Assembly: GCF_902806445.1 (NCBI RefSeq)
Contig: NZ_LR760298.1
Coordinates: 868,001-932,000 of the forward strand
DNA from: Listeria sp. PSOL-1
Lineage (GTDB): Bacteria; Bacillota; Bacilli; Lactobacillales; Listeriaceae
DNA: 64,000 nt
Reading direction: 5' to 3'
Shown: positions 27,457-60,051 of the stretch, piece after piece
How the letters are laid out: every line of letters starts with the position of its first letter
Numbering within the stretch: position 1 is the stretch's first letter
Notes under the pieces: model-generated
Databases searched by the model: none
What the model was told of the DNA's origin: nothing
Seen by the model: only the letters and a program-made list of their open reading frames with translations
Program-made: the position numbers and the translations under genes

Positions 27457-27503
27457 AGAGCCTAGGACAGCGTGCGATTCAGCTATCATAGGCTCTATAT
27501 TTT
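27457..27503 (+). terminator. Terminator after usp
   Basis: Arms AGAGCCTA (27457-27464) and TAGGCTCT (27489-27496), then ATATTTT. Its loop shares the string TGCGATTCAGCTAT with the loop at 47220-47233, so it belongs to a repeated sequence. Confidence 0.75.
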
Positions 27504-27509
27504 GAAATT

Positions 27510-27584
27510 AAAGAGGTTTTTGCCAGAATTCGGAAAAAGAGCGTATGACTGTACGTTGGAGCCGGAAGTCTGATAAACCTCTTT
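27510..27584. repeat. Inverted-repeat family 1, copy A
   Basis: Long imperfect hairpin opening AAAGAGGTTTTTGCCAGA and closing TCTGATAAACCTCTTT, with a central GTATGACTGTAC hairpin and paired CGGAA segments. Copy B at 47301-47373 aligns along the whole length and copy C at 59920-59958 shares the outer stem. It sits between the convergent usp and ackA genes and can act as the ackA terminator. Confidence 0.8.
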
Positions 27585-27607
27585 CTTTATTTTGTTTATC
27601 TTCTAGA

Positions 27608-28804
27608 TTAAGCACGCTCATTTTTTATGCGTTCAACATCGCGAGCAATCATTAATTCTTCATTTGTTGGGACAACAAGTACTTTAACAGGAGAATGCGG
27701 ATAATTTAAGAATGCTTCTTCACCATGAACCTGATTTAATGCTGGATCCCAATATACCCCCATAAACTCTAATCCTTGCAACACTTTTTCACGAATAAAG
27801 GAGCTATTTTCACCAATACCTGCTGTGAAAATAATCGCATCAACCCCATTCATGCGAGCAGCATAAGAACCGATATACTTATGAATGCGATCTACAAAAA
27901 CTTCGAGTGCTAAATCAGCGCGCTCATTTCCTTTAGATGCCGCTTCTTCTAAATCACGAAGATCACTTGAAATTCCAGAAACACCAAGCATACCAGATTC
28001 TTTATTTAAAACATCGAGTACCTGTTCCGCTGTTTTACCCGTTTTTTCCATGATAAATGGAATAAGCGCAGGATCAATGTTTCCAGAACGAGTTCCCATT
28101 GAAACACCGGCAAGTGGCGTGAATCCCATAGAAGTATCAATCGATTTACCGCCTTCAATCGCTGCAATACTGGCTCCATTTCCTAAATGACAAGTAACTA
28201 AGCGTAATTTTTCAATCGGTTGCCCAAGTAGTTCTGCCGCACGCTCAGAAACATATTTATGACTTGTTCCATGAAAACCATATTTACGAATGCCATAATC
28301 TTTATAATAATGATATGGCAGGCTATAAAGGAAACTCTTAGGACTCATTGTTTGGTGGAATGCTGTATCAAAAACAGCAACCGAAATAACATCAGGTAAT
28401 ACCTTACGAAAGGCACGAATACCTGTAACATTTGCTGGATTATGAAGTGGTGCAAGTTCAGATAATGCTTCGATCGCTTCAATTACCTGATCATCAATAT
28501 AAACAGAATCTGGGAATTTTTCCCCTCCATGAACAACGCGATGCCCTATTCCGGTAATTTCATCATAAGCTTTAATAATATGATGCAAAATTAATTTCTC
28601 AAGGAGCATTTGTACAGCGACCTCATGATCGGGAATATCGATAACCTCCGTTATTTTTTCTCCATCTACAGTGATTGTAAAAATTGAATCCTTAAGACCT
28701 ATTCTTTCAACAATACCCTTTGTAATCACTTCTTCAGAGGGCATGTTATATAATTGGAACTTTAGTGATGAACTTCCCGCATTAATTGCAATTGTTTTTT
28801 CCAT
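27608..28804 (-). CDS. ackA: Acetate kinase
   Basis: Converts acetyl phosphate plus ADP to acetate plus ATP in overflow metabolism. The 398 aa include NAGSSSLKF at residues 7-15, [22 protein letters not shown] and TAGIGENS of the ASKHA fold. It starts 10 nt after ytxK ends and is probably co-transcribed with it, as in Bacillus and Listeria. Confidence 0.97.
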
Positions 28805-46985: not shown

Positions 46986-47300
46986 AATTATCACACCTAA
47001 TTATTAATTTCTTGTTTGATTCTACCAGACATTTTTAAAATAATCTATTGTTAGCTAATTAATTTGATAAAAAGAGTGGTTATAGACGCCAAAATAGTTG
47101 TAATACAGCGGGTTTCCCTGGTATAACTTTTACTTATTTTTCGTTTTCTCATACAAAAAAGTACATTTTTTTATTATATTGTGTACATTTAATTGAGTTA
47201 AAAAGAGTCTAGAACATCATGCGATTCAGCTATATTTAAAAAAATATAGCGTATGCTCTACATTCCGAACATGCCCAATCAATGGAAAGTGTTTACAATG
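46986..47300. other. Intergenic region upstream of sftA
   Basis: The stretch between sftA and ytpR shows no ORF. It has a weak extended -10 (TGGTAGAAT on the minus strand, 47019-47027), GTACA...TGTAC repeats around 47161-47187, and the GCTATATTT/AAATATAGC hairpin (47229-47250) with flanking GAGTCTAGAACA and TGCTCT arms that parallel the usp terminator. The family-1 repeat follows. Confidence 0.5.
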
Positions 47301-47373
47301 AAAGAGGTTTGCCAGAAGCCGGAATCAGAGCGTACGATTGTACGTGAGAATCGGAAATCTAGCAAACCTCTTT
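47301..47373. repeat. Inverted-repeat family 1, copy B
   Basis: Starts AAAGAGGTTTGCCAGAAGCC and ends TCTAGCAAACCTCTTT; contains GTACGATTGTAC as central hairpin, flanked by CGGAA/TCGGAA halves. It aligns along its whole length to copy A (27510-27584), with most differences in base-paired positions compensated. Lies just after ytpR and can terminate it. Confidence 0.85.
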
Positions 47374-47375
47374 CA

Positions 47376-48005
47376 TTATTTTGTGTCTGTTCCAGTAACA
47401 GGGAAAATATCGCCTATTTCATATTCATCACTTAGAACTAAAATGCCTTTCTCTTCTGGAGCTAAAGGAATAGCAAGTTCACGCGCTGCACACAGCATAC
47501 CAAATGACTCAATTCCACGTAAATTAGAGGGCTTAATAATCAAACCACTTGGCATGACAGCCCCTACTTTAGCGACAACTACTTTTTGACCAGTAGCCAC
47601 GTTTGGAGCGCCACAAACGATTTGGAGTTGCTCATCCTTTATATCTACTAAACAAATACTCAATTTATCAGCATTAGGATGTTTTTCTTTTTTGGTTACA
47701 TAACCTACAACAAATTTCGGTGTTAGATCAGCTACTAATGTGTCATCGAAGCCACTATGATGGATTACTTGATTGATTTTAAGAAGTAGCTCCTCATCAA
47801 GTGTTACTTTGCCTGTTTCAGTAATTTGAAGATATTTTGAACAATTGAAAATGTTGAATCCACTAAGTTCACCATTTTCTTGATTCATTATTTTAGCTAC
47901 ATCTCCTTTTTTGATAAAGGTTCTTTTCTCTCTTTCGACATCAGAAATCGCAACAATTAATGTGTCGCCGATGCCTTCCTTGTTATAAAATAAATTTACA
48001 ATCAC
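47376..48005 (-). CDS. ytpR: tRNA-binding domain protein YtpR
   Basis: 209-aa protein with an N-terminal region (about 1-85) and a C-terminal OB-fold tRNA-binding domain (about 90-200; FVVGYVTKKEKHPNADKLSICLVDI, NLRGIESFGMLCAARELAI) like the N-terminal EMAP/PheT-type domain. GTG start with GGAGTAAGAAAA upstream. Function unknown; first-principles role is RNA or tRNA binding. It is the last gene of the ytpPQR group. Confidence 0.9.
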   Translation of the reverse strand: MIVNLFYNKEGIGDTLIVAISDVEREKRTFIKKGDVAKIMNQENGELSGFNIFNCSKYLQITETGKVTLDEELLLKINQVIHHSGFDDTLVADLTPKFVVGYVTKKEKHPNADKLSICLVDIKDEQLQIVCGAPNVATGQKVVVAKVGAVMPSGLIIKPSNLRGIESFGMLCAARELAIPLAPEEKGILVLSDEYEIGDIFPVTGTDTK

Positions 48006-50613: not shown

Positions 50614-50925
50614 ATGAACTGGAAAACTTTTATTGCCGGATCTTTAGCAGGAGCGGCAGTCGGTCACTTAATTTATCATTATCTTTTAGAGGATAAAGCC
50701 ATCTCAGGCGATGTTATTTTAGAAAAAGTGAAAGAGGCGTTTAAAAAAGAAGGACCTATTGAAGGTTCATGGATTCAATTAAAAAAACAGCACTACAAAA
50801 AGTATGCCATTGACACTTTTGTTTACCATGGTGGCATTACCGCAGTTCGTGAAGGGGAGAAATTGCAATTTGAATTTATTGCAGATGTAAACACAGGTAC
50901 CATTATTGATGTTTATTTAACTTAA
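50614..50925 (+). CDS. ytzB: PepSY-like small protein YtzB
   Basis: 103-aa protein with an N-terminal membrane helix (about 4-26) and a PepSY-like domain (about 34-103; GDVILEKVKEAFKKEG and FEFIADVNTGTIIDVYL). GGGAGGA precedes the ATG. PepSY domains inhibit peptidases, so a link to the adjacent aminopeptidase is conceivable, but the two genes are divergent. Confidence 0.8.
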   Translation: MNWKTFIAGSLAGAAVGHLIYHYLLEDKAISGDVILEKVKEAFKKEGPIEGSWIQLKKQHYKKYAIDTFVYHGGITAVREGEKLQFEFIADVNTGTIIDVYLT

Positions 50926-50945
50926 TTGCTTTAGAAAAACGAAGG

Positions 50946-50998
50946 TAAAGCGGTTGTATTTGTGGAAATGATCAAAATCCACAAATACAACCGCTTTA
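50946..50998. terminator. Bidirectional terminator with 21-bp perfect stem
   Basis: Arms 50946-50966 and 50978-50998 are perfectly complementary over 21 bp with an 11-nt loop. Lies between convergent ytzB and the CsoR-like gene. The stem is unusually long and free of mismatches. TATC and TTTA ends follow. Confidence 0.85.
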
Positions 50999-51001
50999 TC
51001 T

Positions 51002-51247
51002 TTAGCGCAAAAATGAATCAATTTGTTTCTTCAAATCGACTTTATTGATTTTAGCACTAGTCGAGCTTGTAATTTGCTCTTCAAAAATGACTTTTTGCGT
51101 TCCTTCTAATGCTTTTTTTACTGCGCCTATTTGAATCATGATATCTGCTAAATCGCGTTCATCTTGAAGCATTGTTTTAATCGACCGAACGTGCCCTTCT
51201 ATTTTCGCCATGCGATGAATTATTTTTGTGCGTTTGATTTCGTCCAC
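51002..51247 (-). CDS. CsoR/RcnR-family (DUF156) regulator without metal ligands
   Basis: 81-aa all-helical protein with the family pattern MAKIEGHVRSIKTMLQDERDLADIMIQIGAVKKAL. Start GTG at 51247. It has no cysteine at all; the canonical first cysteine is L33 and the H-C pair is also gone. Histidines are only at 11 and 19. It could be a degenerate metal sensor or sense something else (persulfide and formaldehyde sensors also need cysteine). Its start region has a C-tract operator-like sequence, so DNA binding may remain. Confidence 0.75.
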   Translation of the reverse strand: MDEIKRTKIIHRMAKIEGHVRSIKTMLQDERDLADIMIQIGAVKKALEGTQKVIFEEQITSSTSAKINKVDLKKQIDSFLR

Positions 51248-53727: not shown

Positions 53728-53971
53728 AACAAAACACACCTTTTTCTTTTAGAACTTTTTCATTCATCCCAAAAGTAATCCTAAGAACGTTCAATGATTG
53801 TTGTTAAATTAAATTTTACTTCTCTTAACGGAGCAAGTCAAGTCAACATATGTTCGAATTTACTGCCTAAATAAAATAAACCAGCGATAAACACTCGCTT
53901 TACAAGGGCTTTTGAAGTTTTACATCTAAGCTCTGAAATTGAGATGTTTTCGCTTAATTTATCAACCATTT

Positions 53972-55420
53972 TTAAACTTGTTTTAGTCCATTTATTTTTC
54001 GCTTAATAAAAAGTGTTAAAACCGCAGCAACTGCTGATAGAATGGCAGCAACCATAAAGGCCATTTCGATACCATGAATAAGAACATGATTAGCAATTTC
54101 TTGTTTACTTTTTCCTGCTACCTCAGCCAACGTTAAATTTTTTGAAAAGCTTGTAGCGCTTTTTGACATGACTGTAATTAACGCAGCCGTCCCAATAGAT
54201 CCAGCAACTTGACGGGCTGTATTAAACATCGCTGAAGCATGACTTGCTGCACTTAATGGTAACGAATTTAAAGCAGCGGTTTGAAGCGGCATCATAACCA
54301 TTGCCATGCCACTAGCACGGATGGTTTGAACAATCACAACATACACAAGTGTTGTTTCTTCATCCAAATTGGTAAACATAAAGGTTGTAATGGTCATAAT
54401 AAGTAAACCAACAAACGACAAATACTTAGCGCCAAATTTGTCAAACATAGCTCCTGTAACTGGTGAAAGTAGTGCTGTCATAAAAGCACCAGGAAGAAGT
54501 ACTACCCCTGATTCAAGCGGTGAAAAGCCTCTAACATTTTGCAAAAAAATAGGAAGTAATAACATACCACCATAAAGGCCCATCATGACGAAAAAGCTGA
54601 TGGTTGTCGTTAAAGTGAATGTCACATTCTTGAACACTTTAAAATTAAGGAGTGGTGCCTTCCTTTTATCTTGGGTAGTGACAAAAAGTGTAAGGACAAT
54701 TAATCCAATGACAATAAAACCGGCTACTTTAAAGGTTAACCAATCATGATCCCCAGCATTACTAAATCCAAGTAATAAGCTACCAAAGCCAATCGTCGAC
54801 ATGATTAATCCCAGAATATCTAATCGTGGGAATGAACGTTTACCAACATTTTTAAGTAAGAATATCGCAACGATGATATCTAATACGGCAAAAGGAATAA
54901 TGATGAAAAAAAGATCGCGCCAATCGAAGTCTTGAACAATCCAACCAGAAAGCGTCGGACCAATAGCAGGCGCAAAATTCATTGCAAGTCCAATCAATCC
55001 CATTGCCCGACCACGTCTTTCTAGCGGGAATAAATTTAAAACGACAACTGTAAGTAAAGGCATAACGATCCCTGCTCCAATAGCTTGTATCATTCTTCCT
55101 GCGATTAACATCGGATAATTGAAAGAAAATCCTCCAATGAGCGTCCCAAGGGCAAAAGTCATCATTGCAAATAGGTAAAGTTGCCGTGTTGTAAATCGTT
55201 CAATCAAAAAAGCAGTGGTCGGAATCATCACGCCATTTACAAGCATGAATCCAGTCGAAAGCCACTGTCCTTGACTTGCAGTAATATTAAAATCACGCAT
55301 GATACTTGGTAAAGCAACATTCATTAATGTTTGGTTTAATATTGTTACAAAAGCGCCCATTAACATCACAATTAAAATTCCGTCTCGTTTTACAGCACTT
55401 GTTGAAGCTTTCATATTCAT
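53972..55420 (-). CDS. DHA2-family MFS drug exporter
   Basis: 482 aa, about 14 membrane helices, EmrB/QacA type. Motif A (FLIERFTTRQLYLFAMM region) and motif C GIGAPAIGPTLSGWI (AIGPTLSG). Starts within a 4-bp ATGA overlap with marR, so the regulator-exporter pair is one transcript. Position matches L. monocytogenes Lmo1617. Substrates unknown; export of antimicrobials is probable. Confidence 0.93.
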   Translation of the reverse strand: MNMKASTSAVKRDGILIVMLMGAFVTILNQTLMNVALPSIMRDFNITASQGQWLSTGFMLVNGVMIPTTAFLIERFTTRQLYLFAMMTFALGTLIGGFSFNYPMLIAGRMIQAIGAGIVMPLLTVVVLNLFPLERRGRAMGLIGLAMNFAPAIGPTLSGWIVQDFDWRDLFFIIIPFAVLDIIVAIFLLKNVGKRSFPRLDILGLIMSTIGFGSLLLGFSNAGDHDWLTFKVAGFIVIGLIVLTLFVTTQDKRKAPLLNFKVFKNVTFTLTTTISFFVMMGLYGGMLLLPIFLQNVRGFSPLESGVVLLPGAFMTALLSPVTGAMFDKFGAKYLSFVGLLIMTITTFMFTNLDEETTLVYVVIVQTIRASGMAMVMMPLQTAALNSLPLSAASHASAMFNTARQVAGSIGTAALITVMSKSATSFSKNLTLAEVAGKSKQEIANHVLIHGIEMAFMVAAILSAVAAVLTLFIKRKINGLKQV

Positions 55421-59872: not shown

Positions 59873-59919
59873 CGTTTTGACCTAAACAAAATAAATCGAT
59901 AACAAGCATTCGCGTGTTG

Positions 59920-59958
59920 AAGAGGTTTGCCAGACTCCCGGTTTCTGGCAAACCTCTT
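59920..59958 (+). repeat. Inverted-repeat family 1, copy C (short)
   Basis: AAGAGGTTTGCCAGA and TCTGGCAAACCTCTT make a perfect 15-bp stem around a 9-nt loop. The outer arms match copies A and B; the inner hairpins are missing. Downstream of nnrD, so it probably acts as its terminator. Confidence 0.85.
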
Positions 59959-59996: not shown

Positions 59997-60042
59997 TAAA
60001 AAACGCCCCTAATTCCCCACAAAAAAGGAAACTAAAAGCGTC
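59997..60042 (-). terminator. Terminator after ytgP (murJ-type flippase)
   Basis: Minus strand ACGCTTTTAGTTTCC, loop, GGGGAATTAGGGGCGT followed by TTTTTT. Imperfect stem. Confidence 0.7.
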
Positions 60043-60051
60043 TTTCTTCTT

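What the first reader, a model, noticed from the sequence alone, without database searches (positions are those of the whole stretch)
27510..27584. Family 1 repeats: long structured inverted repeats at three unrelated loci
Copies at 27510-27584, 47301-47373 and 59920-59958 share the AAGAGGTTTGCCAGA outer arm. A and B also share the internal GCGTAYGAYTGTACGT hairpin and flanking CGGAA segments, with many differences in paired positions. C keeps only a perfect outer stem and a 9-nt loop. This looks like a dispersed non-coding element with an internal-deletion form, not three independently evolved terminators. Simple terminators would not need the conserved inner hairpins.
Basis: seen in the sequence. 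Interest (0 to 1): 0.75.

Follow-up and report, generated by a model that had tools for sequence, protein, structure and literature searches.

The report
Hairpin elements nesting at gene ends
The three repeats belong to a family of about ninety mobile-looking, hairpin-forming DNA elements that sit mostly at the ends of genes in this Listeria relative, and a sister family elsewhere in the group carries a copy of a local, terminator-like hairpin on each side.

Summary
A, B and C are three of 94 non-overlapping matches in this 2.1-Mb genome, remnants of a ~150-240-nt element; C is reversed. The core is a long hairpin with strong covariation; mid-stem is hypervariable yet complementary, tip and outer segments conserved. 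By simple ORF calling 93 of 94 copies have a gene ending towards them, 46 between convergent genes. Of 118 relatives nine match, all in sister genus g2, whose named carriers are Listeria. At site A relatives carry an unrelated short terminator-like hairpin.

A sister family with the same tip has direct repeats on both sides in 22 of 30 loci, against 0 of 870 control pairs; 15 are complete hairpins. The tip also occurs in Alphaproteobacteria and a Legionella plasmid.

Best reading: non-autonomous, MITE-like elements homing to terminator hairpins, replacing or duplicating them, now decaying here and perhaps serving as two-way terminators. Closest mechanism: IS1272-type stem-loop transposition; closest repeats: pneumococcal SPRITE and BOX. 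No mobilising enzyme was found; IS30 transposases are absent here and in seven other carriers.

The parts
27457..27496 (+). Copy A, left-end module: short hairpin AGAGCCTAGG...CATAGGCTCT; resembles the left end of copy B
   Evidence: sequence; fold -17.8 kcal/mol, z -3.99; shared TGCGATTCAGCTAT (by itself that 14-mer count is not strong, 2 of 100 shuffles reach 3)
27510..27584 (+). Copy A, core hairpin
   Evidence: R1 match 27483-27610, E 1.2e-11, not in training set
27541..27556 (+). Copy A, conserved apical hairpin GCGTATGACTGTACGT
   Evidence: apical motif conserved in A2 and in family T
27588..27600 (+). Copy A, degenerate right-end remnant
   Evidence: read by eye against the alignment of 30 copies
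47204..47234 (+). Copy B, left-end module AGAGTCTAGAACATCATGCGATTCAGCTAT
   Evidence: alignment
47229..47250 (+). Copy B, side hairpin GCTATATTT-AAAA-AAATATAGC
   Evidence: fold
47301..47373 (+). Copy B, core hairpin
   Evidence: z -7.00; R1 match 47246-47395, E 4e-25, in training set
47376..47395 (+). Copy B, right end; it encodes the stop codon (47376-47378) and last residues of the minus-strand gene 47376-48005
   Evidence: compared by eye with right ends
59884..59918 (-). Copy C, right end (element in reverse orientation)
   Evidence: R1 match 59959-59891 minus, E 2e-7
59920..59958 (-). Copy C, core stem (15 bp perfect) with the inner hairpin deleted to a 9-nt loop
53876..53984 (-). Possible fourth, degenerate copy
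   Evidence: R1 with filters off, E 0.0014; sequence; weak

Best explanation
The repeats are copies of a non-autonomous, hairpin-forming interspersed element (MITE-like). SHOWN: multi-copy, dispersed, structured with covariation, lineage-restricted, mostly at gene 3' ends; one orthologous site in the sister genus holds either the element or a short terminator-like hairpin; a sister family with the same apical motif has a copy of a local hairpin on both sides. INFERRED: a trans-acting transposase or other structure-specific enzyme recognises the element's hairpin (apical motif AGCGGAG-YGTAC-N4-GTACRTGAG and/or terminal repeats) and joins it at the foot of a terminator hairpin. Depending on the side attacked, the target hairpin is duplicated (family T) or lost and replaced (family 1, the window's family), as in the published model for IS1272. 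INFERRED: in this genome the copies no longer move. They decay by deletions between CCGGAAG repeats and by arm mutations, many restored by compensatory or template-switch changes, and persist where a two-way terminator is useful, often between convergent genes.
For: 94 copies, 47 on each strand. Gene context by simple ORF calling: 46 convergent, 47 co-directional, 1 divergent, against 5 convergent of 53 gaps in a hand-picked window gene list, Fisher p 6e-7; sense 25, antisense 22. Covariation over 58 sequences: 97.5% of cells paired against 90.0% shuffled, 231 double-change cells against 64, 0 of 500 shuffles as high. Relatives: 10 of 119 genomes match at E <= 0.01, namely this one and nine of sister genus g2 (stricter filters); a laxer search of the 24 other g1 genomes found none below E 0.0146. 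Site A: 14 of 22 relatives' loci keep usp beside ackA, none has the element; a short hairpin with T tail is seen by eye in 13 and one gap is partly N. Element-for-hairpin swap in g2: L129 against L125 and L102. Family T: direct repeats of >= 14 bp at or near the element ends in 22 of 30 loci, 0 of 870 mismatched pairs; 15 of 22 repeats fold as complete hairpins; insert length 165-177 in 16 of 22. Mechanistic precedent: IS1272 papers.
Against: No helper transposase was found: IS30 was sought and is absent from G000, G009, G020, G022, G027, G031, G032 and G034; IS1182 was not sought. Family 1 itself shows hardly any target duplication: flanking direct repeats of >= 12 bp in 2 of 77 copies here and 3 of 71 in g2 (controls 0 and 0.3%), only L123's 18 bp being long. 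So its mobility rests on dispersal, one swapped site and the sister family. In g2, 12 of 15 tested family-T loci lack repeats of >= 14 bp. The simple terminator scan calls no terminator in the elements A, B or C (it allows loops of 3-8 only); in C's gap it calls an ordinary one at 59999-60045, so there the element is not the only hairpin. In g2, conserved segments at shared sites change less than the stem and G-T exceeds A-C (173 to 4), which hints at function per copy, not pure parasitism. In g2 some copies lie in leaders, 5' of genes.
Confidence: 0.66

Rival explanations
1. A functional structured RNA (cis-regulator, processing site such as an RNase III substrate, or small RNA) kept by selection at each site.
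For: Covariation; in g2 U-G wobbles are conserved on one strand: G-T 173 against A-C 4 cells, and 19 against 3 outside the five columns where wobble is the rule; tip and outer segments nearly fixed at shared g2 sites while the stem changes in 6 of 9 pairs; copies inside a T-box leader, 22-23 nt 5' of tmRNA and 28-30 nt 5' of a TPP riboswitch (positions).
Against: Orientation to the upstream gene is even (25 against 22); about half the copies lie between convergent genes; in this genome, outside four conserved wobble columns, G-T and A-C are about equal (38 and 33, from the table); many copies lack the tip; no Rfam match to the element.
Confidence: 0.14
2. A DNA site for a host protein or for chromosome organisation (REP/BIME-like), spread by recombination or copying.
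For: Conserved tip and outer segments, dispersed on both strands.
Against: Copies are heavily truncated and vary in length; long RNA-like stem with wobbles; sister family has target-site duplications.
Confidence: 0.08
3. Ordinary intrinsic terminators that converged independently.
For: Positions at gene 3' ends; terminator-like hairpins at the same place in relatives.
Against: Sequence identity far beyond a stem-loop; 116 arm matches against 4; conserved tip and flanks.
Confidence: 0.02
4. A long-resident family inherited from the Listeriaceae ancestor and lost in most of genus g1, with little recent movement of family 1.
For: A 29-nt relic (BLAST E 6e-3) beside a side-hairpin-like stem between sdaAA and sdaAB of L. 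monocytogenes; many g2 sites shared between species. Compatible with the main reading.
Against: This genome falls inside g1 in the DnaE tree, with moderate support, so several losses are needed; only 27 locus pairs share a flanking gene with g2 copies and none shares both flanks; R1 does not match the relic.
Confidence: 0.1

Closest known systems
Pneumococcal SPRITE, BOX and RUP repeats (PMC3049150; passages and section 6 read)
   Same: Small interspersed, folded, intergenic; enriched between convergent genes (SPRITE 15 of 30); SPRITE close to gene 3' ends and thought co-opted as terminators.
   Different: No sequence relation was tested; here the stem is hypervariable with compensation, a tip motif is conserved, and the sister family duplicates whole hairpins at its target.
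IS1272 / TnSha1 stem-loop-replacing transposition, IS1182 family (PMC5678879: abstract, passages, sections 21 and 24; PMC4923244: passages)
   Same: Targets hairpins, several of them terminators, without sequence specificity; target stem-loop lost, no duplication (family 1-like); the model predicts whole stem-loop duplication if the other foot is attacked (family T-like).
   Different: IS1272 carries a transposase; these elements carry none, and no IS1182 search was made.
IS1630, IS30 family (Calcutt 1999, seen only as a title in the references of PMC3317919, with its 16-26-bp duplications in a passage)
   Different: Autonomous; no IS30 transposase in G009 or G022, which hold the cleanest duplications.
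Template-switch evolution of hairpins (PMC8794818; abstract and start read)
   Same: Explains multi-base compensatory changes in one step, as in the stem here.
   Different: A mutational process, not an element.

Membership tests
MITE (non-autonomous transposable element) | Multi-copy, short, non-coding, dispersed | tested here: met
   94 copies
MITE (non-autonomous transposable element) | Terminal inverted repeats | tested here: inconclusive
   GAGTCTGGGACA/TGTCCCAGACTC seen by eye at the ends of fuller copies; flank test shows only a weak excess of inverted repeats >= 10 bp: 8 of 77 and 5 of 71 against 5% and 2.6% in controls
MITE (non-autonomous transposable element) | Target-site duplication | tested here: not met
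   Family 1: repeats >= 12 bp in 2 of 77 and 3 of 71 copies, only L123 long. Met in sister family T
MITE (non-autonomous transposable element) | Ends matching a resident transposase gene's element | tested here: inconclusive
   IS30 absent in 8 of 14 genomes incl. this one; 40 left-end pattern hits in G009 and G022, 30 viewed, all followed by family-T-like sequence, 28 by motif and 2 by eye; other transposase families not searched
IS1272-type stem-loop-replacing element | Target hairpin lost and replaced, no duplication | tested here: inconclusive
   One g2 site and site A agree; filled and empty states are too diverged to show the junction; C's gap keeps another terminator-like hairpin
IS1272-type stem-loop-replacing element | IS1182-family transposase | not tested
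IS1630-like duplication of hairpins | Variable-length hairpin duplicated at both ends | tested here: met
   Family T only: repeats in 22 of 30 loci, 15 of them complete hairpins
SPRITE/BOX-like repeats | Enrichment between convergent genes | tested here: met
   46 of 94 against 5 of 53
Intrinsic terminator | GC-rich short hairpin followed by a T run | tested here: inconclusive
   The scan calls none in A, B or C, but it allows loops of 3-8 only and C's loop is 9
Any Rfam family | Match at gathering score | tested here: not met
   0 in window; only neighbouring RNAs in other loci; at E <= 5 one miRNA model touches L034's copy, 23.9 bits against a cut-off of 100

The most novel reading that the evidence does not exclude
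Family 1, family T and the look-alikes in Sphingobium, Rhizobiales, a Legionella plasmid and viral contigs are one trans-phylum class of structure-homing elements. They share a hairpin tip (CCGG-AGCGGA-GCGTAC-N4-GTACGT-GAGCA-CCGG) recognised as RNA or single-stranded DNA by an unidentified mobilising enzyme. They use host terminator hairpins as landing sites, replacing them, duplicating them or sitting in their loop, and renew their own stems by template switching, so that insertion leaves transcription termination intact.
Probability: 0.3. Interest if true: 0.88.

Novelty: new variant of a known kind. Interest (0 to 1): 0.7.

Why it matters
Copying the host terminator to both sides would let a mobile element insert beside genes without disturbing them, a neat answer to how repeats spread in compact genomes. 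The families give natural material for two open questions: how structure-guided transposition chooses between replacing and duplicating a hairpin, and whether perfect long stems evolve by template switching (constant tip and flanks, changing stem, many sites, several species). If the tip motif is one element class across phyla, it is a repeat family without an Rfam entry that can distort terminator, sRNA and riboswitch-leader annotation.

Tried and rejected
Independent terminators: rejected. Known RNA family: no Rfam match to the element. Phage, plasmid or virus origin of family 1 or T: no match in viral contigs to the Listeria-type tips, nor in phage or plasmid records at E 1e-5; weaker limits gave the hits. 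Hypervariable stem captured from the target site: own flanks are no closer than other copies' flanks (6.72 against 6.76 of 9, 58 copies). Strand bias with respect to genes: none. Target duplication in family 1: hardly any. IS30 helper: absent in 8 of 14 genomes. Family T inside this genome: of 18 R2 hits the two viewed are family 1. R2 counts in g2 mix both families: 4 of 39 hits score 81-125 bits and 35 score 30-53, mostly at family-1 positions. Weak R1 hits (E 0.0146-1) occur in 14 of 24 other g1 genomes; I viewed those in G009 and G022 only. Literature: none seen to describe the element, in listings only: 20 of 49 papers, 15 of 24,317, 4 of 4, 5 of 5, 15 of 56 for tip-motif strings; passages of PMC3019230 have nothing. 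Subscription papers are mostly not in that library.

Full report
WHAT IS THERE. The three hairpins are real. Each is part of a larger element. The alignment of 30 copies from this genome gives, in order: a left end (AAGAGTCTRGGACATCATGCGATTCAGC...), a side hairpin, an outer segment (AAATCGAGCGAAAGCGTTTGTATT), a variable stem, a tip (AGCCGGAAGCGGAGCGTACGACTGTACGTGAGAACCGGAAG), the second stem arm, an outer segment (AATGCGAGCGCTTGTCGCCGATTTAT) and a right end (TTTTGTGTATG, then CAGACTC in fuller copies). Copy A keeps the left-end module as its own hairpin and the core. Copy B keeps most modules, its right outer segment being largely gone, and its right end supplies the stop codon of the minus-strand gene at 47376. 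Copy C lies in reverse orientation and has lost the tip. A fourth, weak candidate is at 53876-53984 (E 0.0014).

HOW MANY. The arm 15-mer with up to 2 mismatches occurs 116 times against 4 for the reversed pattern. Covariance model R1, built from 29 copies, gives 140 hits at E <= 1 in the genome, 94 non-overlapping, 47 per strand. Of 1082 candidates of the first look 150 were scored, so 94 may be a lower bound; the weakest few may be chance. Of the 94, 30 have a full loop, 37 a shortened one, 2 a longer one, and in 25 both arms were not found.

WHERE. With simple longest-ORF calling, 46 copies lie between convergent genes, 47 between co-directional genes and 1 in a divergent gap. In a hand-picked gene list of the window 5 of 53 gaps are convergent, two of which hold a copy; Fisher p 6e-7. 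Orientation to the upstream gene is even, 25 against 22.

STRUCTURE. On 58 sequences (23 from this genome, 35 from the sister genus; chosen for full length) the named 48-pair structure has 97.5% paired cells against 90.0% in shuffles, and 231 double-change cells against 64; none of 500 shuffles reaches any of the five measures, and every slid control is far lower on paired cells. The structure was derived from one of the sequences, which favours it on paired cells. The middle of the stem (columns 27-33) has mean column identity 0.73-0.76, against 0.94-0.99 for the left outer segment and 0.90-0.94 for the tip. In the sister genus G-T pairs outnumber A-C 173 to 4 (19 to 3 outside five columns where wobble is the rule), so one strand is the structured one; in this genome 103 to 34, and about equal (38 to 33) outside four conserved wobble columns. 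I read this as strand-specific constraint in the sister genus, relaxed here. Nine pairs of copies at sites shared between sister-genus species were compared: the stem differs in 6, strongly in 2 (L086/L117: stem 11 of 32, tip 0 of 42; L098/L195: stem 8 of 32, tip 4 of 42), and not in 3. Replacement by another copy cannot be excluded at L098/L195. Template switching (PMC8794818, abstract and opening text) would explain such paired multi-base changes.

WHO HAS IT. Among 119 genomes searched, 10 match at E <= 0.01: this one and nine of genus g2, the nine listed. The tip pattern of 21 bases in named contigs hits 34 stretches, all titled Listeria: cornellensis, portnoyi, rocourtiae, newyorkensis, rustica and grandensis; several are identical to g2 loci. 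The four g2 genomes searched more fully give 35-53 hits at E <= 1e-4, both strands counted. The 24 other members of this genome's own genus have none below E 0.0146 with laxer filters; 14 of them have weak hits up to E 1. In a DnaE tree this genome falls inside that genus (long branch, moderate support), so losses or transfer are needed. An L. monocytogenes record holds a 29-nt relic beside a side-hairpin-like stem between sdaAA and sdaAB (BLAST E 6e-3, and R1 does not match it), which favours loss. This genome's own name is not given by any search.

SITE A IN RELATIVES. Of 22 relatives' loci around ackA, 14 keep usp next to it. None of the 14 has the element; 13 show a short hairpin with a T tail, and one gap is partly N (read by eye). 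In the sister genus, L129 (newyorkensis) has the element where L125 and L102 have a 40-nt terminator-like hairpin. Other sister-genus copies sit inside a T-box leader (L101, L121), 22-23 nt before tmRNA (L102, L125, L129) and 28-30 nt before a TPP riboswitch (L118, L109), with element positions. At C the gap also holds a scan-called terminator at 59999-60045 for the minus-strand gene, so C did not replace every hairpin there.

A SISTER FAMILY. Weak tip-only hits in G009, G022 and G032 led to family T. It has the same tip motif, different outer sequences and a right end CANNCTGA. The left-end pattern has 40 hits in G009 and G022, of which 30 came as loci. In these, 22 have direct repeats of at least 14 bp at or near the element's ends, against 0 of 870 mismatched pairs; 15 of the 22 repeats fold as a complete hairpin, four more (L329, L333, L347, L351) look like parts of one broken by a mismatch, and three do not; the insert is 165-177 nt in 16 of 22. 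That the hairpins are host terminators is judged by eye from their T tails and place. In the sister genus the same test on 15 loci gave 3 with repeats of 14 bp or more: L291 (21 bp), L309 (24 bp) and L290, whose 15 bp are the element's own right-end sequence; 12 have none (five of the 24 loci given had no tip match and were dropped, four were G009/G022). Model R2 finds 70 matches in G009, 27 in G022, 20 in G020, 4 and 6 in the two g3 genomes, and 23-81 in the nine g2 genomes, where family 1 cross-hits are mixed in. I did not view the g3 matches.

WIDER. The 47-nt tip region of family T matches intergenic places in plasmids of Sphingobium, Agrobacterium, Ensifer, Phyllobacterium, Legionella and others, best E 3e-4 and 1e-4 in two queries with a limit of 10, so the lower rows are weak. 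R2, made from Listeriaceae only, matches all 8 such loci tested (four alphaproteobacterial, one Legionella, three viral contigs) at E 1e-15 to 3e-7; they were chosen for the tip, so this is partly circular. R1 matches them more weakly, E 1.2e-5 to 0.58. In the four alphaproteobacterial loci the cap is alike while the base stems differ and pair.

MECHANISM. The published IS1272 model says: attack at the 3' feet of the target hairpin loses it, at the 5' feet duplicates it, at the loop duplicates the loop (PMC5678879, passages). TnSha1/IS1272 targets were hairpins, several of them confirmed terminators, with deletion and no duplication (PMC4923244, passages). IS1630 is titled as duplicating inverted repeats of variable length (reference in PMC3317919). 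Family 1 looks like loss, family T like whole-hairpin duplication. This is an analogy: no transposase was tied to either. IS30 was sought in 14 genomes and found in 6, not in G000, G009, G020, G022, G027, G031, G032 or G034. IS1182 could not be sought.

VERDICT. A real, large family of mobile-looking hairpin elements, not seen described in the searches made; a new variant of a known kind. Terminator function in the window is plausible and untested; the simple terminator scan, which allows loops of 3-8 only, does not call A, B or C.

Noticed in passing
L328-L357 (G009, G022): Family T: structured elements, insert mostly 165-177 nt, with a copy of one hairpin on both sides (repeats in 22 of 30 loci, 15 complete hairpins).
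   Followed up: yes
L360-L367: The same hairpin tip in intergenic regions of alphaproteobacterial plasmids, a Legionella adelaidensis plasmid and three viral contigs; in the four alphaproteobacterial loci base stems differ but pair.
   Followed up: partly
L101 7610-7990, L121 1157-1537: A family-1 core sits inside a T-box leader in two Listeria species, which still scores as a T-box.
   Followed up: partly
L111 3080-3153, L120: Longer sister-genus variant: 74-nt insert in the inner arm; several copies about 220 nt long.
   Followed up: partly
L358 2960-3060: Relic of the element between sdaAA and sdaAB in L. monocytogenes.
   Followed up: partly
L123 about 640-900: The only family-1 copy with a long repeat (18 bp, AAAAAGGAGGCCTTTTAG) on both sides.
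   Followed up: partly
L286 1329-1501: A family-T element abuts an M-box riboswitch.
   Followed up: no
window 50938-51003: Long near-perfect hairpin downstream of the plus-strand ORF ending at 50925; weak R2 hit, E 0.0034; probably a plain terminator.
   Followed up: no
whole genome G000: 2.10 Mb against 2.6-3.2 Mb in 24 congeners: a reduced genome holding many copies of this repeat.
   Followed up: no
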